DNA from: Gemmatimonas aurantiaca T-27
GTDB taxonomy: Bacteria > Gemmatimonadota > Gemmatimonadetes > Gemmatimonadales > Gemmatimonadaceae
Assembly (NCBI RefSeq): GCF_000010305.1
Contig: NC_012489.1
Span: 1,860,001-1,924,000, forward strand
Direction of reading: 5' to 3'
DNA length: 64,000 bases
Shown in pieces: positions 21,623-56,797 of this stretch. Position 1 is the first letter of the stretch; each line of letters begins with the position of its first letter. The notes beneath the pieces were generated by a model. It did not search any database, was not told the DNA's origin, and worked only from the letters and a program-made list of their open reading frames with translations. The translations under genes were made by a program, and so were the position numbers.

Positions 21623-21696
21623 CGGGGCGTAGCGTAGCCCGGTATCGCGCCTGCTTTGGGAGCAGGAGGTCGCCGGTTCGAATCCGGCCGCCCCGA
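21623..21696 (+). tRNA. tRNA-Pro (anticodon TGG)
   Basis: Acceptor CGGGGCG (21623-21629) pairs with CGCCCCG (21689-21695), with discriminator A at 21696 and no encoded CCA. The anticodon loop is CTTTGGG with anticodon TGG, and the T arm contains GGTTCGAATCC. Confidence 0.93.
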
Positions 21697-21803
21697 TCCG
21701 TTGTGTTGGTGCAGGCGTTGGGTAGTGCCGTCGCGAGGCGGAGTGGGGCCTGCTTCGGCAGGTGGTCAAGGTGCCCGGCAGGGTGACCAGTTGCGACGGG
21801 TAG

Positions 21804-21877
21804 GCGCCAGTAGCTCAGATGGATAGAGCGGCAGCCTTCTAAGCTGTTGGTCGGGGGTTCGAATCCCTCCTGGCGCG
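21804..21877 (+). tRNA. tRNA-Arg (anticodon TCT)
   Basis: Acceptor GCGCCAG (21804-21810) pairs with CTGGCGC (21870-21876), discriminator G. The anticodon loop CTTCTAA gives TCT, reading AGA/AGG. CCA is not encoded. It lies 107 bases after tRNA-Pro and probably shares its transcript. Confidence 0.93.
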
Positions 21878-21901
21878 CTTTGACTGTTGGTGTTCGAGTC
21901 C

Positions 21902-21973
21902 GCACCCTTAGCTCAATGGTAGAGCAGCTGACTCTTAATCAGTAGGTTCTAGGTTCGAGTCCTAGAGGGTGCA
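21902..21973 (+). tRNA. tRNA-Lys (anticodon CTT)
   Basis: Acceptor GCACCCT (21902-21908) pairs with AGGGTGC (21966-21972), discriminator A. The anticodon loop CTCTTAA gives CTT, reading AAG. The gene follows tRNA-Arg by 24 bases. CCA is not encoded. Confidence 0.94.
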
Positions 21974-22678
21974 TGTGTGGTACGTCCGGTTGCCGGGCGG
22001 ATCAAGAGAAGGTTCGGGGCAGCACTTGTGTTTCCGAGCAAGCTCGGTTAGATAGAAAGACTCAAGGCGAACGCGGTCACAACCGTGCAAGCGGTTGCGG
22101 CAAACCTTGATGGCATCGCGGCAGGTCTTTGGATTGGGTCGCGAACCGTTGGTGAAGTCAGTAAGGCTGTTGGTGTTGCTGGTCGTTGTCACGCAGTCCG
22201 ATCTCGGTACTTGCTGGAACGGTTCCACAACTCTTCGAGGCTTTTACGGTTTTCTCTCGGTGCTGATCGGGTTCAACTCCCGATGATGCTTTCGGTGGCT
22301 TCGGCCACCAAACCGCGGCGGCTGGGTTTCCTGGCCGCCGTTGCTGTCTCCGGTGGTGAAGTGCTTTGGTGGCCCGTTGCAACACGGGTTGGGCGATCGG
22401 AAAGAAAGATCGCGACGGGGCTTGCGCTCTGAACATCGAAAGCATAACTTCGCCACCCCTTCGCAGGACGAGCCAGTGCGCGACACACGTTGCGCAGGCC
22501 GTTTTGAGAGGACCCAGAGCGTGTTGAGTGTGGCTGACGCCGCGACGAAAGACACTGCAAAAGGGGACTTGAAGAAAGAGAACAGCAGGTTATGGTTAAG
22601 GACTGCCGCCGAAACGGTGGCAACAGAGAACTTGGTAAGTGACGCAGCCGCAAGCGGTTGCGCGGATATAGCAGGAAC
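21974..22678 (+). other. gene-free structured region upstream of 16S rRNA
   Basis: No credible protein gene or tRNA lies in these 705 bases. The open frames seen (for example 22085-22432 and 22341-22700) have no SD, atypical composition and no family resemblance. Several consecutive hairpins occur, including GGTGGC-TTCG-GCCACC (22294-22309), CGGCGGC/GCCGCCG (22316-22340), CCCGT/ACGGG (22373-22388) and GCGATC/GATCGC (22393-22413), so this is probably an RNA leader or contains a structured RNA. A possible promoter is noted separately. Confidence 0.6.
22569..22596 (+). promoter_or_regulatory. possible rrn promoter
   Basis: TTGAAG (22569-22574) and TATGGT (22591-22596) are 16 bases apart, upstream of boxA and the 16S processing stem, with an A-rich stretch before the -35. 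The match is only moderate; read-through from the tRNA promoter at 21578 could also supply the operon. Confidence 0.35.
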
Positions 22679-22690
22679 GCTGTTTGACAA
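22679..22690 (+). promoter_or_regulatory. boxA-like antitermination site in the 16S leader
   Basis: GCTGTTTGACAA matches the boxA consensus TGCTCTTTAACA closely, and the same 12 bases recur in the 16S-23S spacer at 24514-24525. NusB/S10-type antitermination of the rrn transcript is inferred. Confidence 0.65.
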
Positions 22691-22722
22691 TCGAAGTTGA
22701 GATCGAAGGATGTGCGGGGCGG
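22687..22722 (+). promoter_or_regulatory. 5' arm of the 16S rRNA processing stem
   Basis: This arm can pair along nearly its full length with 24443-24476 on the far side of 16S, giving the RNase III processing stem; the TTGAGATCGA core matches exactly and small bulges occur near GAAGG. Confidence 0.7.
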
Positions 22723-22857
22723 TCTCTATGACCTGCGGCTTCTTCAGGGCTGCGGCGAGAGATCAATCTGTTGATTTTGTGATTCGCGTATCGATCAGCC
22801 GCTTCGGCGGTTGGATCATTGCGAAGAGCCTATCAAAAGGCTCCAAGAGCTTGAAAA

Positions 22858-24382
<1,525 letters not shown>

Positions 24383-24442
24383 CGGAGCGACGAGTAGCAC
24401 GGCCCTTCGGGGTGTCGGTGCGAAAGTCCCGGAGTAAGTCGT

Positions 24443-24476
24443 CCGCTCTGCACATTCTCGATCTCAACTCGATTGT
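24443..24476 (+). promoter_or_regulatory. 3' arm of the 16S rRNA processing stem
   Basis: Complementary to the leader arm at 22687-22722, with the core ATCTCAACT opposite AGTTGAGAT. It would bring the two ends of precursor 16S together for cleavage. Confidence 0.7.
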
Positions 24477-24513
24477 CGATACTTCTCGATCCCACGGGGT
24501 TTGAGGGGATCGT

Positions 24514-24525
24514 GCTGTTTGACAA
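24514..24525 (+). promoter_or_regulatory. boxA-like site in the 16S-23S spacer
   Basis: A second exact copy of GCTGTTTGACAA, the same as in the leader at 22679-22690, consistent with renewed antitermination before 23S. Confidence 0.65.
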
Positions 24526-24700
24526 CGGATGTGGGTAGTGATCGTGGGTACTACAGCAACACTTGCGGCCATCGGCCGGGAGGGTTGCTGCTAGGACGAA
24601 GAACCTCAGTGAGACGTAGTACCGATTAAATGCGGAAACGCATTTTTCTGTAAAACGCTCACTCGTTCAAAGCGCGTGCTTTGCTTGAAAGTTGGGAAAG

Positions 24701-27646
<2,946 letters not shown>

Positions 27647-27649
27647 CCC

Positions 27650-27666
27650 CCATGGTTTTTCCATGG
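27650..27666 (+). other. hairpin in the 23S-5S spacer
   Basis: CCATGG (27650-27655), five T and CCATGG (27661-27666) form a 6-bp hairpin immediately after 23S. It may mark the 23S 3' processing site. Confidence 0.45.
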
Positions 27667-27811
27667 TTAAGCAATCCCGCAGAGCACACGCACGTCATGC
27701 TTCGCATCGCCTCGCACGGCGACGAAGCCCCATGATCACACCCATCCGTTTGTCAGCTGCGCCGCAGGCCTAGGCCCGCAGAAGTACGCACAGCTTTCAT
27801 AATCGATTTTC

Positions 27812-27927
27812 GCTGGCAACTAGAGCGTCAGGGCCATACCCGTTCCCATCCCGAACACGGTCGTCAAGCCTGATAGCGCCGATGGTACTCCGGGCGAGAG
27901 CTCGCGGGAGAGTAGGCCGTTGCCGGC
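27812..27927 (+). rRNA. rrf: 5S ribosomal RNA
   Basis: About 116 nt. The ends GCTGGCAAC (27812-27820) and GTTGCCGGC (27919-27927) pair, with one G-T wobble; internal conserved CCCGTTCCCATCCCGAACACGG and the GCGCCGATGGTAC and GGGAGAGTAGG segments are typical of 5S. Confidence 0.93.
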
Positions 27928-27934
27928 ACCTTTT

Positions 27935-47917: not shown

Positions 47918-48970
47918 ATGCAGGCAGGTCAGCAGCGTGCGCAGTTTGTCGGACCGGACGCGCCCCGAATCGGGGTCGTTGGTGCGGGAGGACTGGGCAT
48001 GCATCATGTGCGTATTCTCCGCGATCTCTGCGGTCCGAGATTCGTCGGCTTTGTCGACGAAAATCCGGGGCGGGCCACTGAAGTGGCTTCTCAGTACGGC
48101 GTGACCTCGTATGGCTCACTGGAGCGCCTGCTGGCCGATGTGGACGCCGTATCCATCGTGGTGCCCACCCGCTCGCATCATGCGGTTGCGGCCAGGGCGC
48201 TGGCGATGGGCAAACATGTCTTCGTGGAGAAGCCGTTCACGGTGACCCTCGAAGAAGCCGATGAACTGCTGGCCATGGCCGCGTCGGCCGGCGTGGTGTT
48301 GCAGGTGGGGCATGTGGAGCGATTCAATCGGGCCGTGCGCGCGGCGATGCCCTACGTGGATGGCCCACGATTCATCGAGAGTGATCGACTCGCGCCGTTC
48401 AGTCCGCGTGGGGCCGACGTCGCGGTTGTACTCGATCTCATGATTCACGATCTCGACCTCGTGCACACGCTGGTGGGAACCCGTGTGGCCGATGTGCAGG
48501 CGATGGGCATTCCGGTCTTGACGCCACAGGTCGATATCGCCAATGCGCGGCTCACGTTTGCCAACGGCGCGGTGGCCAACATCACGGCGAGTCGTGTATC
48601 GCGTGAACGCCTGCGGAAGTTGCGGCTTTTCCAGCGCAGCGGATATCTCTCGCTGGATCTGGCGGCCGGAACCGGAGAGTTCTTTCGCCTGCGTGGTGAT
48701 TTTGATCCCATGCAACTCGCACGGGCACCGCGGGCCCTCGAGGACTTTGTGGAGCGGGTTCAGCTCGACGCCCCCGAAGGGGAGCCGCTGGTCATGGAGC
48801 TGTCGCAGTTTCTCGGCGCGGTGATGGGTCGCAATCCCATTGCCGTCACGGGGCAGGAGGGACGCGAAGCACTCGAAGCCGCGCTCCGTATCGTGGCTGC
48901 CATCGACGCCGCGCAGAATGTGATGGGACATCCCACGCTGCTATCGGCACACGGAGCCCCGCGTGCGTGA
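47918..48970 (+). CDS. Gfo/Idh/MocA-family NAD(P)-dependent dehydrogenase within the lpx operon
   Basis: 350 aa. The Rossmann domain has RIGVVGAGGLGMHHVRIL, and the family's EKPF catalytic Lys lies in FVEKPFTVTLEEAD. The C-terminal domain is the usual GFO_IDH_MocA type (DLMIHDLDLVHTLVG). In Acidithiobacillus the lpxA-lpxB gap holds gnnA (same family) and gnnB for UDP-GlcNAc3N; here gnnB is absent, so a GnnA-like role is only a hypothesis. ATG 47918 is backed by GGAG; GTG 47900 is an alternative. The stop overlaps lpxB. Confidence 0.85.
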   Translation: MQAGQQRAQFVGPDAPRIGVVGAGGLGMHHVRILRDLCGPRFVGFVDENPGRATEVASQYGVTSYGSLERLLADVDAVSIVVPTRSHHAVAARALAMGKHVFVEKPFTVTLEEADELLAMAASAGVVLQVGHVERFNRAVRAAMPYVDGPRFIESDRLAPFSPRGADVAVVLDLMIHDLDLVHTLVGTRVADVQAMGIPVLTPQVDIANARLTFANGAVANITASRVSRERLRKLRLFQRSGYLSLDLAAGTGEFFRLRGDFDPMQLARAPRALEDFVERVQLDAPEGEPLVMELSQFLGAVMGRNPIAVTGQEGREALEAALRIVAAIDAAQNVMGHPTLLSAHGAPRA

Positions 48971-50090
48971 GGTGTTGTTCGTCGTCGGTGAAGCATCCGG
49001 CGATCTGCACGCAGGCAAAGTGGCGGAAGTGCTCCGTGCGCGTGCGCCGGAGCTACCGATGGTGGGCGTGGGTGGCGGGCATATGCGTGCCGCAGGCGTC
49101 ACCTTGCTCGACGATGTGGAGCGTCTGGCGGTGATGGGTTTTGTGGAGGTGCTGCAGCACGTGCCCAAACATTGGGCACTTCTGCGTCGCCTGCGCGCGC
49201 GCATCGAGAGTGGGAGGGTCGGCCTGGTGGTCTTGCTCGACTATCCCGGATTCAACCTCCGCGTGGCAGAAGTGGCCCATCGCGCTGGTGTGCCCGTGCT
49301 CTACTACATCACGCCGCAGGTGTGGGCGTGGGGCGCTGATCGACTGCCGAAGTTGGCGCGTCTGGTGACGAAGGCGGCGTCCATCCTGCCTTTCGAGGAA
49401 GCGCTGCTGCGCGCCCATGGCATCGATGCCACGTTTGTCGGCCACCCGCTGCTCGATCGCGCGCAGTCGCTGCCGTCACAAGCGGAAGCGCGACAGCAAC
49501 TGGGTTTGCCCGCCGATGCACCGGTGCTGGCGATGTTTCCCGGTAGTCGTCGGGCCGAGATTGCGCGCCATCTGGAACCGTTCACGCAGGCAGCCCTCGA
49601 CGTGCAGCGTCGACGTCCCGATGTACACGTCGTGGTGAGTGTCGCGCCGACCGTGAAGATCTCGCCCAGCGATTGCCCGTTTCCGCTCGTGCATGGTGCG
49701 TCGTTCGTGGTGCAGCGGGCGGCAACGGCGGGGCTGCTCAAAAGCGGCACGAATACGTTGGAAGCCGCCGTGGCCGGGCTTCCCCATGTGATCGGCTATC
49801 GCACCAGTGCGATCACGTACGCCATCGCACGGCGGGTGGTGAAGATCCCACACATCGGGCTGGTGAATGTGGTGGCCGGTGAAGCGGTGTCTCCGGAGTT
49901 CGTGCAGGAGGCGTTCGTGCCGGCCAATGTGGCGGATGCCCTGATGCCACTGTTCGATGTCACCAGTGAAGCGCGACAGCAGGCCGAGGCGGGACTGGCG
50001 CGGGTGCGAGCGCAGTTGGGAACTCCGGGGGCGTCCGCACGTGTCGCGGAGATGATTCTCGCGATGCAGGGCGGAGCGCGTGTCGGCTGA
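48963..50090 (+). CDS. lpxB: lipid-A-disaccharide synthase LpxB
   Basis: LpxB joins lipid X and UDP-2,3-diacyl-GlcN to form the lipid A disaccharide. The 375 aa GT-B glycosyltransferase has FVVGEASGDLHAGKVAEVLR, LLDYPGFNLRVA, YYITPQVWAWG and FPGSRRAEIARHLEPF, all family marks, and the C-terminal nucleotide-sugar site (LKSGTNTLEAAV). GTG 48963 lies within the preceding gene. Confidence 0.95.
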   Translation: MREVLFVVGEASGDLHAGKVAEVLRARAPELPMVGVGGGHMRAAGVTLLDDVERLAVMGFVEVLQHVPKHWALLRRLRARIESGRVGLVVLLDYPGFNLRVAEVAHRAGVPVLYYITPQVWAWGADRLPKLARLVTKAASILPFEEALLRAHGIDATFVGHPLLDRAQSLPSQAEARQQLGLPADAPVLAMFPGSRRAEIARHLEPFTQAALDVQRRRPDVHVVVSVAPTVKISPSDCPFPLVHGASFVVQRAATAGLLKSGTNTLEAAVAGLPHVIGYRTSAITYAIARRVVKIPHIGLVNVVAGEAVSPEFVQEAFVPANVADALMPLFDVTSEARQQAEAGLARVRAQLGTPGASARVAEMILAMQGGARVG

Positions 50091-50814
50091 CCAGCAGCCG
50101 TCGGCGGCACAGCCAGCGGCACAATCGCCTTCGGAAACGCCAGCAGCGTCCAAGGGCGGCCCCGCGGCGCTCGGCTGGAAAGTGCGCGCGGCCATTCTGC
50201 TGGGTGGCACTCTGCTCAAAGTGCTCGGCTGGACATGGCGTCTCCGGATTGTGGGCCGCGATGCGCTCGCCGCACGCCCTGCCGGCACGGATCCCGTGGT
50301 CTTCACGTTGTGGCACGGGCAAATGCTCGCCTGCCTGTACGGCCACAAGATTCACACCGGTGTGCTCATCAGCGAACATCGTGACGGTGAGATCATCAGC
50401 CAGATCGTGGCGATGTTCGGTGCGTTCGGCATTCGTGGCTCGAGCTCGCGCGGGGGCACGCGTGCGTTGCTGGAGGCGGCACGCATCGCGCGCCAGGGCA
50501 CCGATATCGCATTCACACCGGACGGACCACGTGGCCCGCGATACAGCTACGCCCCGGGGCCTCTGATTCTTGCGCATCGCGCCGGCGTTCCCATCGTCAC
50601 GATCACTGCGCATGCCGATCGGTTGTGGCAGCTCAAGTCGTGGGATCGTTTTGAAATTCCCAAGCCCTTTGCGCGGGTGACGGTGCTGTATGGTGCGCCG
50701 CAGGTTCTCGAGGACGCCGATGTGCGCGACGCCGCCGCACGCGTCGACGAGTTCAGTGCCGACATGCAAGCAAAGGTGCGCGCCGTCGCAGACCTGGCTG
50801 CCGCACGCGCATGA
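50080..50814 (+). CDS. DUF374-type lysophospholipid acyltransferase-like protein
   Basis: 244 aa. The core has VFTLWHGQMLACLYGH (HxxxM-like active site replacing the HX4D of PlsC relatives), FTPDGPRGPRYSYAPG and a single hydrophobic helix near residues 35-50. DUF374 proteins are thought to be lipid A or lipid acyltransferases, and here the gene sits between lpxB and lpxK, so a late lipid A acylation is inferred. The N-terminal 25 residues are Ala/Ser/Pro-rich. GTG 50080 overlaps lpxB; the stop overlaps lpxK. Confidence 0.8.
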   Translation: MSADQQPSAAQPAAQSPSETPAASKGGPAALGWKVRAAILLGGTLLKVLGWTWRLRIVGRDALAARPAGTDPVVFTLWHGQMLACLYGHKIHTGVLISEHRDGEIISQIVAMFGAFGIRGSSSRGGTRALLEAARIARQGTDIAFTPDGPRGPRYSYAPGPLILAHRAGVPIVTITAHADRLWQLKSWDRFEIPKPFARVTVLYGAPQVLEDADVRDAAARVDEFSADMQAKVRAVADLAAARA

Positions 50815-51887
50815 GCACGAATGCCCGGTTGCGCGCATTGGCCGACTGGGTGTGGTACGCGGACAGCGCCGCGGCCGCTACGGCTCGTGGCGCGCTGACG
50901 CCTGCCGAATGGGTCTTCGCCGCTGGTGTTGCGCGACGCAATGCACGATTCGATCGTGCGCTCCTTGCCGATGCACCGGGCGGGCTGGCCTTGCCGCCGA
51001 TGCCCCTTCCGGCGATGTCCATCGGCAACCTCACCGTGGGTGGCACCGGCAAGACACCGGTCGCGTCCTGGTTTGTATCGCGCCTCCTCGAGCGGGGCGC
51101 GCGTCCCGCGCTGGTATTACGCGGGTATGGGGATGATGAGTGGCGGGTGCACGAACGGCTGACGCCCGAGGCCTCGGTCATCGTGAATCCTGATCGGGTG
51201 GCGGGCGCGCAGGAGGCGTTGGTACGTGGCGCCGACTGCGTGGTGTTGGACGATGCCTTCCAGCATCGCCGTGCCCGGCGGATCAGCGATGTCGTGCTGC
51301 TCAGTGCTGACCAGTGGCAGCCGGCGGCGCGTATGCTCCCCGCCGGTCCCTACCGCGAGGGGTACCACGCGCTCGCGCGCGCCACGGCCGTTGTGGTGAC
51401 CGTGAAGGCCGCTTCCGACGAGGCGGTGGCGGCGGTGGTGCACATGGCGACGCACCATGTGGCCCAGGCCCGTATCGCGGTCGTGCGTCTGGCTGCGGCG
51501 GGCCTGAGGCCTGCGGCGGGCGAGGCCGAAGCGCCCCCGATGGAAGGGCTGCGCATCGTCGCGGTATCGGCCATTGGGAATCCTTCGGCCTTCGAGCAGC
51601 AACTCCGGACGGCCGGTGCGGAGGTGAGGGGCCACCTGCGCTATCCGGACCATCATCAGTTCACCAGTGGTGAGGTTTCGGAGATGGTCCGCGTTGCGGA
51701 ACGGGGGGATGGCGTCGTCTGTACACTGAAAGATGCCGTCAAGCTGGGTCCGCTATGGCCTCGCGTCGGGCCGGCGCTTTGGTATCTTTCACAGACTGTC
51801 GTGGTCATTCGAGGCGCCGAGGTCCTGGAGCAGGAGTGTGACCGGGTACTGGCGGCGCGGCGGGCCACGATTCCCACCGCCGGCTGA
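50811..51887 (+). CDS. lpxK: tetraacyldisaccharide 4'-kinase LpxK
   Basis: LpxK phosphorylates the 4' position of the lipid A disaccharide. The 358 aa has the P-loop SIGNLTVGGTGKTPV, RGYGDDEWRVHER, DDAFQHRRARR and YPDHHQFTSGEV, all family motifs. ATG 50811 overlaps the preceding stop. It is the last gene of the lpx block. Confidence 0.94.
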   Translation: MSTNARLRALADWVWYADSAAAATARGALTPAEWVFAAGVARRNARFDRALLADAPGGLALPPMPLPAMSIGNLTVGGTGKTPVASWFVSRLLERGARPALVLRGYGDDEWRVHERLTPEASVIVNPDRVAGAQEALVRGADCVVLDDAFQHRRARRISDVVLLSADQWQPAARMLPAGPYREGYHALARATAVVVTVKAASDEAVAAVVHMATHHVAQARIAVVRLAAAGLRPAAGEAEAPPMEGLRIVAVSAIGNPSAFEQQLRTAGAEVRGHLRYPDHHQFTSGEVSEMVRVAERGDGVVCTLKDAVKLGPLWPRVGPALWYLSQTVVVIRGAEVLEQECDRVLAARRATIPTAG

Positions 51888-51913
51888 GTCCGGCCTTTCA
51901 CATCTGAAGCCTC

Positions 51914-53095
51914 ATGGCCATCGACCTCCTCCGACTGCCGACGGACAGCATTGTCCGCCCGGACAAGGATCGGTTCCTCAACGAAGAGAACCCCTTCGAA
52001 GCGATGATGTCACGCTTCGACCGCGCTGCCGAACTGCTCGATCTCGAGCCCGGCATCTACAAGATTCTTCGCAATCCCGAGAAGCAACTGACCGTTTCCG
52101 TTCCCGTGATGATGGACAACGGTGACGTGGAAGTGTTCACGGGATATCGCGTGCTGTACAACACGTCACGCGGACCCGCCAAGGGCGGTATCCGCTTCGA
52201 CATGAATGTGACGCAGGAAGAAGTGAAGGCGCTCGCCGCCTGGATGACCTGGAAGTGCGCCGTGGTGAACCTGCCGTTTGGTGGCGCCAAGGGCGGCGTG
52301 ATTTGCGACCCGCTGATGGACACGTACTCCATGCATGTCGGTCGCACCGAGAACGCCGTCGTGACCGGCAAGCCGGTGGAGATGGGCGGTTCGCTGGGTC
52401 GTCGTGAAGCCACGGGTCGTGGCTGCATGCTGGTCACCAAGGAAGCGTTGGAACACCTGGGCATGCCGATGAAGGGCGCGACGGTGGCCGTGCAGGGGTT
52501 CGGCAACGTGGGCTCGGTGGCCGCGAAGCTGTTGGCCGAGCAGGGATGCCGTATCGTGGGCATCAGTGATCGCTTCGGCGCGTTCCACAACAAGAACGGT
52601 ATCGATGTGGATGCGGCGATCGCGCACGTGAAGCAGCATCGCTCGCTCGAAGGTTTCACCGGTGGTGATGCCATCGACGCCGACGACATCCTGACGCTCG
52701 AAGTGGATGTGCTGGTGCCGGCCGCGCTGGAGAACGTGATCACCACGAAGAATGCGCCGAAGATCCGCGCCAAGGTGATCTGCGAAGGAGCGAACGGCCC
52801 CACCACGGCGGCGGCGGATCCGATCCTCGATGAGAAGGGTATCTTCGTGATCCCGGACATTCTCGCCAATGCAGGCGGCGTGACGGTGTCCTACTTCGAA
52901 TGGGTGCAGGATCGCATGGGCTATTTCTGGAGCGAAGCGGTCGTGAACGAGCGCCTCGGCGACATCATGACGCGGAGCTTCCAGGACGTGCTGCAGTTGT
53001 CGAAGCAGCATCGGGTGAACATGCGTACGGCTGCGTACATGGTGTCCATCAGCCGTGTGGCCACGGTGCACCGCCTGCGCGGCATCTATGCCTGA
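51914..53095 (+). CDS. Glu/Leu/Phe/Val dehydrogenase with apparent internal deletion
   Basis: Oxidative deaminase of glutamate (or a branched amino acid). The 393 aa protein has [11 protein letters not shown] (Lys90), [19 protein letters not shown] (Lys114 and Lys126) and the NAD-binding [11 protein letters not shown], and ends normally in HRLRGIYA. Between CDP (residue 133) and MDTYSMH (residue 135), the family normally has about 44 further residues, from the LERLTRRY helix to the PAPDVNTN stretch that carries the catalytic Asp (Asp165 in C. symbiosum GDH). These residues are missing in frame. The enzyme may be inactive, or the region may be misassembled. Confidence 0.82.
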
Positions 53096-53122
53096 TCAGG
53101 GATCGGCGCGAGCCGCCTCCTG

Positions 53123-53587
53123 ATGCGTGTCGCACTGCTTGTCATCGGCCGGCCTCGCCATGCGGGGCTGGCCGATGCCATTCGGGACTATGAGGGACGC
53201 GCGGCGCACTACTGGCCGCTGGATGTCATCGAAGTCAAGGAAGAACCCGGGCGGAACCTGTCGGCCGATGTGGTCCGTGAGCGTGAGGCGGAGCGGCTGG
53301 TGGCGCGTCTGCCGGCGGACGCTGTGGTCGTGGCTTGTGACCCGGGTGGTGTAACCATGGACTCCGCGCAATTTGCGCGATGGCTGCAGGAGCAGCGGGA
53401 ATCGGCGCGGAATGTGGCGTTCGTGATCGGCGGGGCGCATGGGCTTGGGCCGGCGGTTCGGGAACGGGCCAATCGTCGGCTCTCACTGGCGCCGTGGACG
53501 CTCCCACACGAGGTTGCACGGATGGTGATGGCCGAGCAGTTGTATCGGGCGGGGACCATCATCCGCGGCGAACCGTACCACAAGTGA
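53123..53587 (+). CDS. rlmH: 23S rRNA (pseudouridine(1915)-N(3))-methyltransferase RlmH
   Basis: SPOUT methyltransferase that modifies pseudouridine 1915 in 23S. The 154 aa has the N-terminal [14 protein letters not shown], the knot region VVACDPGG and [13 protein letters not shown], and the C-terminal [22 protein letters not shown] typical of the family. ATG 53123 lacks a clear SD. It follows the dehydrogenase after 27 bases. Confidence 0.94.
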
Positions 53588-53603
53588 AATTCAGCGAACA
53601 CGC

Positions 53604-55226
53604 GTGAGCGACGTGGACCAGTCTGCAGCTCTGATCAGCACGACCGACGATGTCATCATCCGCACGGCCCCCTTGGGTGGGAGTGCGTTGTCGCGCGCGA
53701 TACAGCAGGGCGCTGTCGGCGCCCAGTGGTATGCCCCCCGACCGACCAATGTGGCCGGATGGCGTGCACACGCGGCAGCGGTGCGCGCGTCCTTTGCGGG
53801 ACGGGATTGGTTGTCCCCATTGATGCCAGCCATTGCCGCGTCCGGCGCCGCGACGGCGCGCCTCACGCGTGCCGCGCAGGACGGCGTGGTGGTGACCACC
53901 GGACAACAACCCGGTCTGTTCGGCGGCCCGACGTATACGTGGAGCAAGGCCATGGGCGCATTGGCCATGGCTGATGTGCTCGAGGCGGAGCTGGGAATTC
54001 CGGTGGCCCCCGTGTTCTGGGCCGCGACCGATGATGCCGATTGGATCGAAGCGGCGGTGACGTATCTGGCCACATCCACTGGTCTCGAGCGAGTGGCGTT
54101 GCCTGGTCCAGCCAGCGACGGCGTGGCGATGGCCGATGTGCTGATGGGTGACGTCGATGCCGCGATGGCCCAGTTGGTGCGCGCGTGTGGATCGGGGGCG
54201 CATGCGTCGGTACTCGACGTCATTCAGGCTGCCTATACGCCGCACGCGACCATCGGTGCGGCGTATGTCGTTTTGATGCGTGCCCTGCTCGAACCGCTTG
54301 GCATGGCGGTGCTCGACGCTGCACATCCGGCCACGCGAGCGGCGGCTGATGGGTTCCTGCGGACGGCATTGCGTTCGGCATCGGCGGTGCATCACGCGGT
54401 GCAGAGCCGCGCGATGGCGATCGAAGCCGCGGGGCATGTGCCTCAGGTGGAGATCATCGACGGATTGTCGCTGGTGTTTTTGACGGATGGCACGGGCGCG
54501 CGTACGCGTGTCCCCGTCGTTGGGGCAGGCGACGTGGCCCAGTCGGCACCGGTGGGTGCGCTGGGGGCCAACGTGCTCCTGCGGCCGGTGATGGAGCGCG
54601 CATTGATACCGACCGTGTGTTACATGGCCGGTCCCGGTGAATTCGCGTATTTCGCGCAGGTAGCGCCGGTGGCGGAGGCGTTGGGCGTGGCCTCACCGAT
54701 CGTGGCCCCGCGCTGGGCTGCCGAGGTGCTCGAAGCCGATGCCCTCGAACGGCAAGCGCGTCTGGGATTGACCGACGAAGCGCTCCGCGACCCACACGCG
54801 GCGGAACAGATCATTGCCCGGGCGCAGCTCGACGAGTCGGTGGCCGATGCGGTGGAGCGCCTGCGAGTGACACTCGAGTCGCAACTGGCCTCGCTCGGTG
54901 AGGCGTTGCGTGTGCCGGACGATGAGGCAGAGTACGAAGCGCTGGTGGCCGCGTCGGTGGTGGAAGGGCTCGAGCGTGATATCACGCATCGTGTTGACCA
55001 GTTCGAACGTCGGCTGTTGTCTGCCGTCAAGCGACGCGAAACCGCCGCGATGCAAGACGTGGCTGCGACACGCGCCGCGCTGCGACCGTTGGGCCAGCCC
55101 CCCGAGCGCGTCCTCAATCTCGTGCCGCTGCTCGTGCGCTTTGGGCCGACATTGCTCGAACGTTTGCGCGATGCGGCCGTCGGGCATGCGCAACAGCTCG
55201 TGACGGGTGTATCGGGGCAGGCATGA
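53604..55226 (+). CDS. bshC: bacillithiol synthase (cysteine-adding enzyme) BshC
   Basis: BshC adds cysteine to GlcN-malate, the last step of bacillithiol synthesis. The 540 aa length fits; the characteristic VVTTGQQPGLFGGPTYTWSK is at about residues 95-115, and the usual FWxAGEDHD block reads FWAATDDADWIE, so the conserved His is replaced by Ala. A long C-terminal coiled-coil-like helix follows (LERDITHRVDQFERRLLSAV). bshA and bshB are not in the window. GTG 53604; the stop overlaps murJ. Confidence 0.85.
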   Translation: MSDVDQSAALISTTDDVIIRTAPLGGSALSRAIQQGAVGAQWYAPRPTNVAGWRAHAAAVRASFAGRDWLSPLMPAIAASGAATARLTRAAQDGVVVTTGQQPGLFGGPTYTWSKAMGALAMADVLEAELGIPVAPVFWAATDDADWIEAAVTYLATSTGLERVALPGPASDGVAMADVLMGDVDAAMAQLVRACGSGAHASVLDVIQAAYTPHATIGAAYVVLMRALLEPLGMAVLDAAHPATRAAADGFLRTALRSASAVHHAVQSRAMAIEAAGHVPQVEIIDGLSLVFLTDGTGARTRVPVVGAGDVAQSAPVGALGANVLLRPVMERALIPTVCYMAGPGEFAYFAQVAPVAEALGVASPIVAPRWAAEVLEADALERQARLGLTDEALRDPHAAEQIIARAQLDESVADAVERLRVTLESQLASLGEALRVPDDEAEYEALVAASVVEGLERDITHRVDQFERRLLSAVKRRETAAMQDVAATRAALRPLGQPPERVLNLVPLLVRFGPTLLERLRDAAVGHAQQLVTGVSGQA

Positions 55227-56797
55227 CTGACCGGGCAGGCGGACGCTCCGCGTTCGTCGTCGGGGCGGGGATCCTGATCAGCCGCCTTGTCGGTGTGCTG
55301 CGCAACACGGCGTTCGCGTACTACTTCGGATCGGGCGCGGCGTCCGACGCCTACAACGCCGCCTTCAAGATTCCCAACGCGGTACGCAATCTGTTGGGCG
55401 AGGGCACATTGTCCGCGTCTTTTGTGCCGGTGTACAGCCGCCTGCTCGAGCGCGGAGATCATGCCGGTGCGCGCGCCCTCGCGAATGCGTTGCTCGGTGT
55501 GTTGCTCGTTGCCGTTTCCGGCCTGACGTTGCTGGGGATCGCCACCGCACCGTGGCTCACCGCGGCGCTCGCGCCGGGGTTCGATGCGCCGACACAGGAA
55601 CTCACCACCCGCCTCACACGCATTCTGTTTCCGATGACGGGCGTCATGGTGCTGAGCGGCTGGTGCCTTGGCATTCAGAATTCACATCGGCGCTTTTTCT
55701 GGTCGTATGCGAGTGCGGCGCTCTGGTCGATTGCTCAGATCGTGTTGCTGCTGGTCGGTGGGCCGCGCGCTGACGACACGACCATGTTGGCGACCTGGCT
55801 CGCTTGGGCGACCCTGGTCGGTGCGTTGCTGCAGGTTGGTGCGCAGATGCCCGAGGTGCTCCGTCTTGCCGGCCCGATCCGTCCACGACTGTCCCGAACG
55901 GTGGAGGGCCTCGCACAAACGCTGCGCAATGTCGTGCCGGTGGTGACGGCGTTGGGGGTGGTGCAGATCTCGTCGTTCATCGACCTGCAGATCGCCTCGT
56001 TTCTTCCGGAGGGGGCGGCCACCAACATGATGTATGCCAATACGCTGACCCTGTTGCCGGTTTCGTTGTTCGGCGTATCGGTGGCCGCAGCATCGCTTCC
56101 GGAGTTCTCCCGGGACTCGGGGGCGCAGGCCCTCGACGCGCTGCGTGAGCGTCTGCGCGGTGGCTGGCAGCGTATCCTGTTTTACATCGTGCCCAGCGCC
56201 GTCGTGTTCATTGCACTGGGCGACTACTGCGTGGGCATTCTCTATCGTGCGGGTCGGTTTGGTGTGACCGAGCAGCAGGTGGTGCATTGGGTGCTCGCGG
56301 CGTCGGCCGTTGGACTGATCAGTTTTGCGTCGGTGAAGCTGCTGGCCTCGGCGTACTACGCATTGCAGGACTACCGCACGCCATTGCGCGCGTCCATTGC
56401 CAGCATCCTGGTGTCGGCAGTGGCATCCATTGCCATAGCGGTGCCGTTGCGGCATTCGCCGGTCGCCACGGCGGGTATTGCGTTGGGGTCCGCGCTTGGA
56501 TCTTACGTCAACCTGTCCATTCTCATTGGTGGACTTCGCCGGCGACTGGGCACGCTGTACACACCGGCGATGTGGCATGGCACGCGGCGCATCGTGATCG
56601 CCGCGGTGATCGCCGCCATGGCGGGAACCCTCGCACGGCTGCTGCATGTGCGTTGGATGCCCGGACTGCACCCACGTTTTGCCGGACCGCCGGTGCTCGC
56701 GGTCTTTGGGGCGACCTATCTGCTCGCGGCCTGGTGGATGGGATCGGCCGAAGCGGCGCGTTGGCTGCGGCTGCGTGTGCGCAGCACGGCGGACTGA
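55223..56797 (+). CDS. murJ: lipid II flippase MurJ
   Basis: MurJ, a MOP-superfamily membrane protein, moves lipid II across the inner membrane. The 524 aa has about 14 TM segments, with GILISRLVGVLRNTAFAYYF at the N-terminus (conserved Arg in TM1), KIPNAVRNLLGEGTLSASF and a later FGVSVAAASLPEFSR. ATG 55223 overlaps bshC. uvrC follows with no gap. Confidence 0.93.
   Translation: MTDRAGGRSAFVVGAGILISRLVGVLRNTAFAYYFGSGAASDAYNAAFKIPNAVRNLLGEGTLSASFVPVYSRLLERGDHAGARALANALLGVLLVAVSGLTLLGIATAPWLTAALAPGFDAPTQELTTRLTRILFPMTGVMVLSGWCLGIQNSHRRFFWSYASAALWSIAQIVLLLVGGPRADDTTMLATWLAWATLVGALLQVGAQMPEVLRLAGPIRPRLSRTVEGLAQTLRNVVPVVTALGVVQISSFIDLQIASFLPEGAATNMMYANTLTLLPVSLFGVSVAAASLPEFSRDSGAQALDALRERLRGGWQRILFYIVPSAVVFIALGDYCVGILYRAGRFGVTEQQVVHWVLAASAVGLISFASVKLLASAYYALQDYRTPLRASIASILVSAVASIAIAVPLRHSPVATAGIALGSALGSYVNLSILIGGLRRRLGTLYTPAMWHGTRRIVIAAVIAAMAGTLARLLHVRWMPGLHPRFAGPPVLAVFGATYLLAAWWMGSAEAARWLRLRVRSTAD

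What the first reader, a model, noticed from the sequence alone, without database searches (positions are those of the whole stretch)
52304..52324. Glutamate/leucine dehydrogenase lacks about 44 residues including the catalytic aspartate
Directly seen: the reading frame goes from CDP (residues 131-133) straight to MDTYSMH (135-141), while the flanks are otherwise well conserved and in frame. Known: in this family the gap normally holds a helix with LERLTRRY and the loop PAPDVNTN with the catalytic Asp (Asp165 in Clostridium symbiosum GDH). Inference: the enzyme is inactive or remodelled, or about 132 bases were lost in culture or assembly.
Basis: partly seen in the sequence, partly recalled or inferred. 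Interest (0 to 1): 0.75.

Follow-up and report, generated by a model that had tools for sequence, protein, structure and literature searches.

The report
Glutamate dehydrogenase missing its active-site segment
In the sequenced genome of a wastewater bacterium, the one classical glutamate dehydrogenase gene that was found has a clean 129-base in-frame hole that removes a catalytic residue, most likely a recent knock-out mutation (or a fault in the assembly) and not a new kind of enzyme.

Summary
The segment, with its PAPD[V/M/L]NT loop, is present in 80 of 80 GTDB loci examined and in 28 of 29 loci from related genomes (overlapping sets); the 29th is cut by a contig end. It was not found elsewhere in the 4,636,964-base chromosome, whose length equals the published Gemmatimonas aurantiaca T-27 genome. 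No other full-length GDH was found; a glutamate synthase domain gene is present. Among 55 conserved window ORFs this is the only deletion of 8 or more residues shared against all relatives compared. Selection still shows on the rest of the gene: a neutral phase covers at most about 7% of the T-27 branch. Best reading: a recent loss-of-function deletion, natural or in culture, leaving an inactive and probably unstable GDH. It resembles the cryptic gudB allele of domesticated Bacillus subtilis, except that no backup GDH was found. A clone or assembly deletion cannot be excluded without reads. A remodelled or regulatory protein is possible but unsupported. Sound small finding, moderate to low interest.

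The parts
51914..53095 (+). gdh, glutamate dehydrogenase gene with a 129-base in-frame deletion (393 aa; complete orthologues of the genus are 435-436 aa)
52313..52318 (+). deletion junction: Leu134 codon (CTG) directly followed by Met135 codon (ATG); 43 codons absent. CTG could come from either side, so the breakpoint is ambiguous by a few bases
52283..52306 (+). retained stretch GAKGGVIC with the likely catalytic-lysine equivalent Lys126, shortly before the hole
   Evidence: K126 invariant in 50 of 50 rows; role of the Lys from PMC7326016 passages, equivalence by motif and recall
52385..53083 (+). complete coenzyme-binding domain PF00208 (profile 1-241 of 241)
52076..52315 (+). remaining part of the dimerisation/substrate domain PF02812 (profile 1-80 of 129)

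Best explanation
A single recent 129-base in-frame deletion, possibly between short matching sequences at the two flanking codons, removed one helix, the substrate-site loop with the catalytic aspartate and the start of the next helix from domain I of the only classical hexameric GDH found in G. aurantiaca T-27. The product is expected to be catalytically dead and, since the active-site strand next to the hole loses its surroundings, misfolded and degraded. The cell would then make glutamate by glutamine synthetase and glutamate synthase, and lack GDH-based glutamate breakdown, which glutamate-containing laboratory medium would tolerate. Shown: the deletion in the assembly, its absence from the relatives examined, the lost residues, no other full-length GDH found, a glutamate synthase domain gene. 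Inferred: inactivity, instability, recency, mechanism of deletion, metabolic consequence (glutamine synthetase was not searched for).
For: Segment present with identical spacing in 27 of 29 orthologous loci of related genomes and in one more that begins inside it; the last is cut by a contig end. Present in 80 of 80 GTDB loci (the best 80 of 576 confirmed stretches, and partly the same contigs as the 29). P163, A164, P165, D166, N168 and T169 invariant in the 49 GTDB loci aligned. Asp142 and Lys102 of Arabidopsis GDH1 carry out proton steps (passages of PMC7326016); the Asp equivalent is lost, the Lys kept. Segment not found elsewhere in the genome; the only other gene over the PF00208 cut-off is a 381-aa protein nearest to ScyB-type tryptophan dehydrogenase, below that model's cut-off; no large GDH; glutamate synthase domain in a 1601-aa frame. 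AlphaFold2: mean pLDDT of residues 121-130 is 85 in a full orthologue and 34 here; best PDB match 1b26 at rmsd 6.8 against 4.0. Rest of gene under selection: omega 0.045 on the T-27 branch, omega 1 rejected (2dlnL 24.3), not significantly different from the background 0.022 (2dlnL 2.63); neutral phase at most about 7% of the branch. NBRC822 medium contains sodium glutamate 0.5 g/L (passage of PMC9530729).
Against: Inactivity was not measured. Strong conservation of the remainder is equally expected of a shortened protein that still works, or of an intact gene misassembled. The full-length model is itself of low confidence within 161-203, so part of the disorder in the deleted model is not due to the hole. 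The deletion was seen in one assembly only.
Confidence: 0.64

Rival explanations
1. The hole is an artefact: a deletion in a cloned fragment or an assembly slip in the finished genome; the living strain has a normal GDH of about 436 aa.
For: Only one assembly of the species was available, and none of the loci examined from other genomes shows the loss. The remainder of the gene looks like that of a working enzyme, and the genome would otherwise have no classical GDH that I could find.
Against: No other T-27 deletion of 8 or more residues shared against all relatives compared in 55 conserved ORFs, 19,322 aa, so the assembly is not generally prone to such gaps in this window. The junction is clean and in frame, though chance alone gives a frame-keeping loss one time in three.
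Confidence: 0.26
2. The shortened protein is made, folds and keeps a function: a remodelled dehydrogenase or a regulatory pseudoenzyme.
For: Frame kept; C-terminal coenzyme-binding domain complete; a neutral phase of more than about 7% of the branch is not favoured; T-27 has one residue change at aligned sites where all 26 others agree, within the 0 to 4 of genus members.
Against: Catalytic Asp and the substrate-loop residues are lost; predicted domain I core is disrupted; no locus examined shares the form, so no sign of long-term maintenance.
Confidence: 0.08
3. The lost segment is supplied from elsewhere (split gene, trans-splicing, bypass) so that a full enzyme is made.
For: None found.
Against: No match to the segment in the genome; no inserted sequence at the junction.
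Confidence: 0.01

Closest known systems
Hexameric glutamate dehydrogenase (ELFV superfamily; e.g. Thermotoga maritima 1b26, Arabidopsis GDH1 6yei)
   Same: Top sequence and fold matches; aligned on both sides of the hole; complete coenzyme-binding domain; Lys motif kept
   Different: 43 residues of domain I, with the catalytic Asp loop, are missing
Cryptic gudB (gudB-CR) of Bacillus subtilis 168
   Same: In-frame lesion in the active-centre part of a GDH gene; product inactive and unstable; known only in domesticated strains (passages of PMC4285742)
   Different: gudB-CR is an 18-bp direct repeat, reactivated by spontaneous mutation, in a strain that also has an active rocG (that reversion removes one copy is recalled); here 129 bases are gone, which cannot simply revert, and no second classical GDH was found
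Short amino-acid dehydrogenases of the ELFV family (Leu/Phe/Val/Trp DH)
   Same: Similar overall length (355-367 aa for the PDB chains listed)
   Different: The one in this genome keeps the whole N-domain (PF02812 1-128 of 129); the window protein does not

Membership tests
Hexameric glutamate dehydrogenase | ELFV C-terminal coenzyme-binding domain complete | tested here: met
   PF00208 1-241 of 241, E 1.5e-80
Hexameric glutamate dehydrogenase | ELFV N-terminal dimerisation/substrate domain complete | tested here: not met
   PF02812 1-80 of 129; 1-128 in an orthologue
Hexameric glutamate dehydrogenase | catalytic lysine (GGAKGG) | tested here: met
   K126, invariant in alignment A1; role from PMC7326016 passages, equivalence by motif
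Hexameric glutamate dehydrogenase | catalytic aspartate in PAPD loop | tested here: not met
   absent from the chain and not found in the genome; invariant in the 49 orthologues aligned
Hexameric glutamate dehydrogenase | curated NCBIfam GDH equivalog cut-off | tested here: not met
   best model GdhA_Arch 449 bits of 750; but an intact orthologue also fails it at 541 bits, so this does not separate the two, and substrate specificity rests on similarity to solved GDHs
Hexameric glutamate dehydrogenase | hexamer formation and glutamate:NAD(P) oxidoreductase activity | not testable with these tools
   needs expression and assay
Hexameric glutamate dehydrogenase | descent from an intact orthologue | tested here: met
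   match over residues 1-393 at 82-85% identity, hole counted, in 7 of 7 relatives; neighbouring ORFs match in the same fetched stretches, order not checked
Cryptic GDH allele of the gudB-CR kind | in-frame lesion at the active centre of an otherwise conserved GDH | tested here: met
Cryptic GDH allele of the gudB-CR kind | lesion is a perfect direct repeat that can revert | tested here: not met
   deletion, no repeat
Cryptic GDH allele of the gudB-CR kind | inactive, unstable protein | not testable with these tools
   predicted only

The most novel reading that the evidence does not exclude
The 393-aa protein is a stable pseudo-dehydrogenase that still binds NAD(P)(H) through its intact Rossmann domain and acts as a redox or nitrogen sensor, or joins other subunits, after the species gave up GDH catalysis.
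Probability: 0.05. Interest if true: 0.65.

Novelty: new member of a known kind. Interest (0 to 1): 0.3.

Why it matters
G. aurantiaca T-27 is the type strain of the type species of its genus and the first cultured member of its phylum (passages of PMC8779627), and is studied for N2O reduction. If the hole is real, this reference strain probably lacks a GDH activity that its relatives have, so its nitrogen physiology should not be taken as typical of the genus, and a metabolic model that counts this gene as a working GDH would be wrong. If it is an assembly fault, a core gene of a reference genome needs correcting.

Tried and rejected
Second full-length GDH or large NAD-GDH in the genome: none found; other matches to the protein are weaker, at best E 5.4e-9. 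Missing segment elsewhere: none. Naturally shorter clade of GDH: not seen. Pseudogene decay by excess amino-acid change: T-27 has the highest omega point estimate of 22 tips (0.0450; next L029 0.0438) and, apart from two zero-length tips, the highest position-1+2 to position-3 tip ratio of the genus members (0.033; next 0.026), but the likelihood difference is not significant. Generally gappy assembly: not in this window. The microhomology at the junction (2-4 bases) depends on the unknown ancestral codon and is only suggestive.

Print: four papers hold both 'Gemmatimonas aurantiaca' and 'glutamate dehydrogenase'; I saw the listing only, and none is about this gene by title. Searches showed no title on it among the rows listed (30 of 78, 20 of 1,907, 6 of 6, 8 of 913). 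Park et al. 2017 (PMC5452805) is not held. So 'not in print' is not claimed beyond these searches.

Rows dropped: three incomplete orthologues of 30 (L009, L026, L033) before the trees; then five of 27 (four distant family members and one duplicate) before the codon model. Scripts stopped with errors and were redone; for the identity floor for kept hits was lowered from 45% to 30% and ORFs starting at 22001-27599 (ribosomal RNA) were dropped, 10 of 65. The 55 ORFs were chosen mechanically by conservation; some antisense ORFs among them are probably not genes.

Full report
What is there. The ORF at 51914-53095 (+) encodes 393 residues. Pfam gives a complete ELFV coenzyme-binding domain and an N-domain cut at position 80 of 129. 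PDB glutamate dehydrogenases match in two pieces that break at residue 134 and NCBIfam GDH models match in two stretches. No NCBIfam GDH cut-off is met, but an intact orthologue misses them too (541 of 750 bits for the best model), so the name GDH rests on similarity to solved GDHs. The genome is one contig of 4,636,964 bases, the length given for Gemmatimonas aurantiaca T-27 in Table 1 of PMC11271474 (passages). Two relatives used below, G028 (4,716,552 bases) and G029 (5,179,092 bases), match in size G. phototrophica AP64 (4.717 Mbp) and G. groenlandica TET16 (5,179,092 bp) in PMC7844134 (passages).

The hole. In orthologues 44 residues lie between the Pro of CDP and MDTYS; in T-27 one does. 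Of 29 orthologous loci from related genomes, 27 have 44 residues, one (L009) starts inside the segment and contains the rest of it, and one (L033) is cut by a contig end at MDTYS. Of the 80 GTDB loci kept (best of 576; some are the same contigs as the 29), 79 parse with 44 residues (77 PAPDVNT, 2 PAPDMNT) and the 80th (L114) reads PAPDLNT. So 43 codons, 129 bases, are missing at 52315/52316. P163 to D166, N168 and T169 are invariant in the 49 loci aligned. In Arabidopsis GDH1, Lys102 primes water and Asp142 passes protons (passages of PMC7326016). That the Asp of PAPD is this residue, and Asp165 of C. symbiosum GDH, rests on motif position and recall.

Is it more than chance? For 55 conserved, non-overlapping window ORFs (19,322 aa; 10 further ORFs over ribosomal RNA dropped), compared with two to seven relatives each (24 with two only), indels of 8 or more residues occur in 18 ORFs, this one included, but only the GDH hole has the same place and size against every relative, 43 residues in 7 of 7.

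Backup. A protein search of the genome finds this gene and otherwise weaker matches, at best E 5.4e-9. PF00208 gives two T-27 genes over its cut-off, this and a 381-aa paralogue, whose N-domain is whole and which is nearest to tryptophan dehydrogenase ScyB, below that model's cut-off (413 of 600 bits). No large GDH. A glutamate synthase domain lies in a 1601-aa frame, another in a 525-aa frame and a weak match in a 399-aa frame. A second GDH-like paralogue seen in 10 of 29 genus relatives is absent from T-27. Glutamine synthetase was not searched for.

Age and selection. With a GY codon model on 22 sequences (the script reproduces IQ-TREE's likelihood), omega on the T-27 branch is 0.045 against 0.022 (2dlnL 2.63, not significant) and omega 1 is rejected (2dlnL 24.3). 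T-27 has the highest point estimate of 22 tips, so slight relaxation is possible. A model with a final neutral phase fits best, of the values tried, at 2% of the branch and is disfavoured above roughly 7%. This fits a recent knock-out, an artefact, or a still useful short protein, and speaks against an old pseudogene.

Structure. AlphaFold2 with 49 or 50 sequences gives mean pLDDT 79.9 for a full orthologue and 75.8 for the T-27 protein. The stretch 121-130, with the catalytic Lys, has mean pLDDT 85 in the first and 34 in the second. The full orthologue is itself poor within 161-203, so only part of the disorder is due to the hole. The best PDB match for both is T. maritima GDH (1b26), rmsd 4.0 for the full model and 6.8 for the shortened one.

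Interpretation. A recent loss-of-function deletion is most likely, with an artefact next. The nearest precedent is gudB-CR of B. subtilis 168, an in-frame lesion in the GDH active centre of domesticated strains whose product is inactive and degraded (passages of PMC4285742). G. aurantiaca has been grown in medium with 0.5 g/L sodium glutamate (passage of PMC9530729), which would permit loss of a GDH; that is a plausible setting, not evidence. Reads are the missing test.

Noticed in passing
window 22858-27928 (+): A ribosomal RNA operon (16S 22858-24381, 23S 24701-27648, 5S 27812-27928) in whose 16S-23S spacer no tRNA gene was found; three tRNA genes (Pro, Arg, Lys) lie upstream at 21623-21973.
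   Followed up: no
window about 27900-51900; contigs G001:C63, G009:C1, G013:C65, G021:C8, G024:C16: In these relatives' draft genomes the contig begins about 22-25 kb before gdh; in the window the rRNA operon ends 24 kb before gdh, as expected if assemblies break at rRNA repeats.
   Followed up: partly
genome G000 compared with genus relatives: A second GDH-like ELFV paralogue found in 10 of 29 genus relatives is absent from T-27, whose only other ELFV gene over the Pfam cut-off is a 381-aa ScyB-like amino-acid dehydrogenase (L002:934-2079).
   Followed up: partly
window 48963-56797 (+): Neighbours lpxB, a DUF374 protein, lpxK, gdh, a SPOUT methyltransferase (PF02590), a BshC-like protein and murJ lie on one strand; each has a match in the stretches fetched from all 7 relatives. 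A BshC-like bacillithiol-synthesis protein in this genus may merit a look.
   Followed up: no
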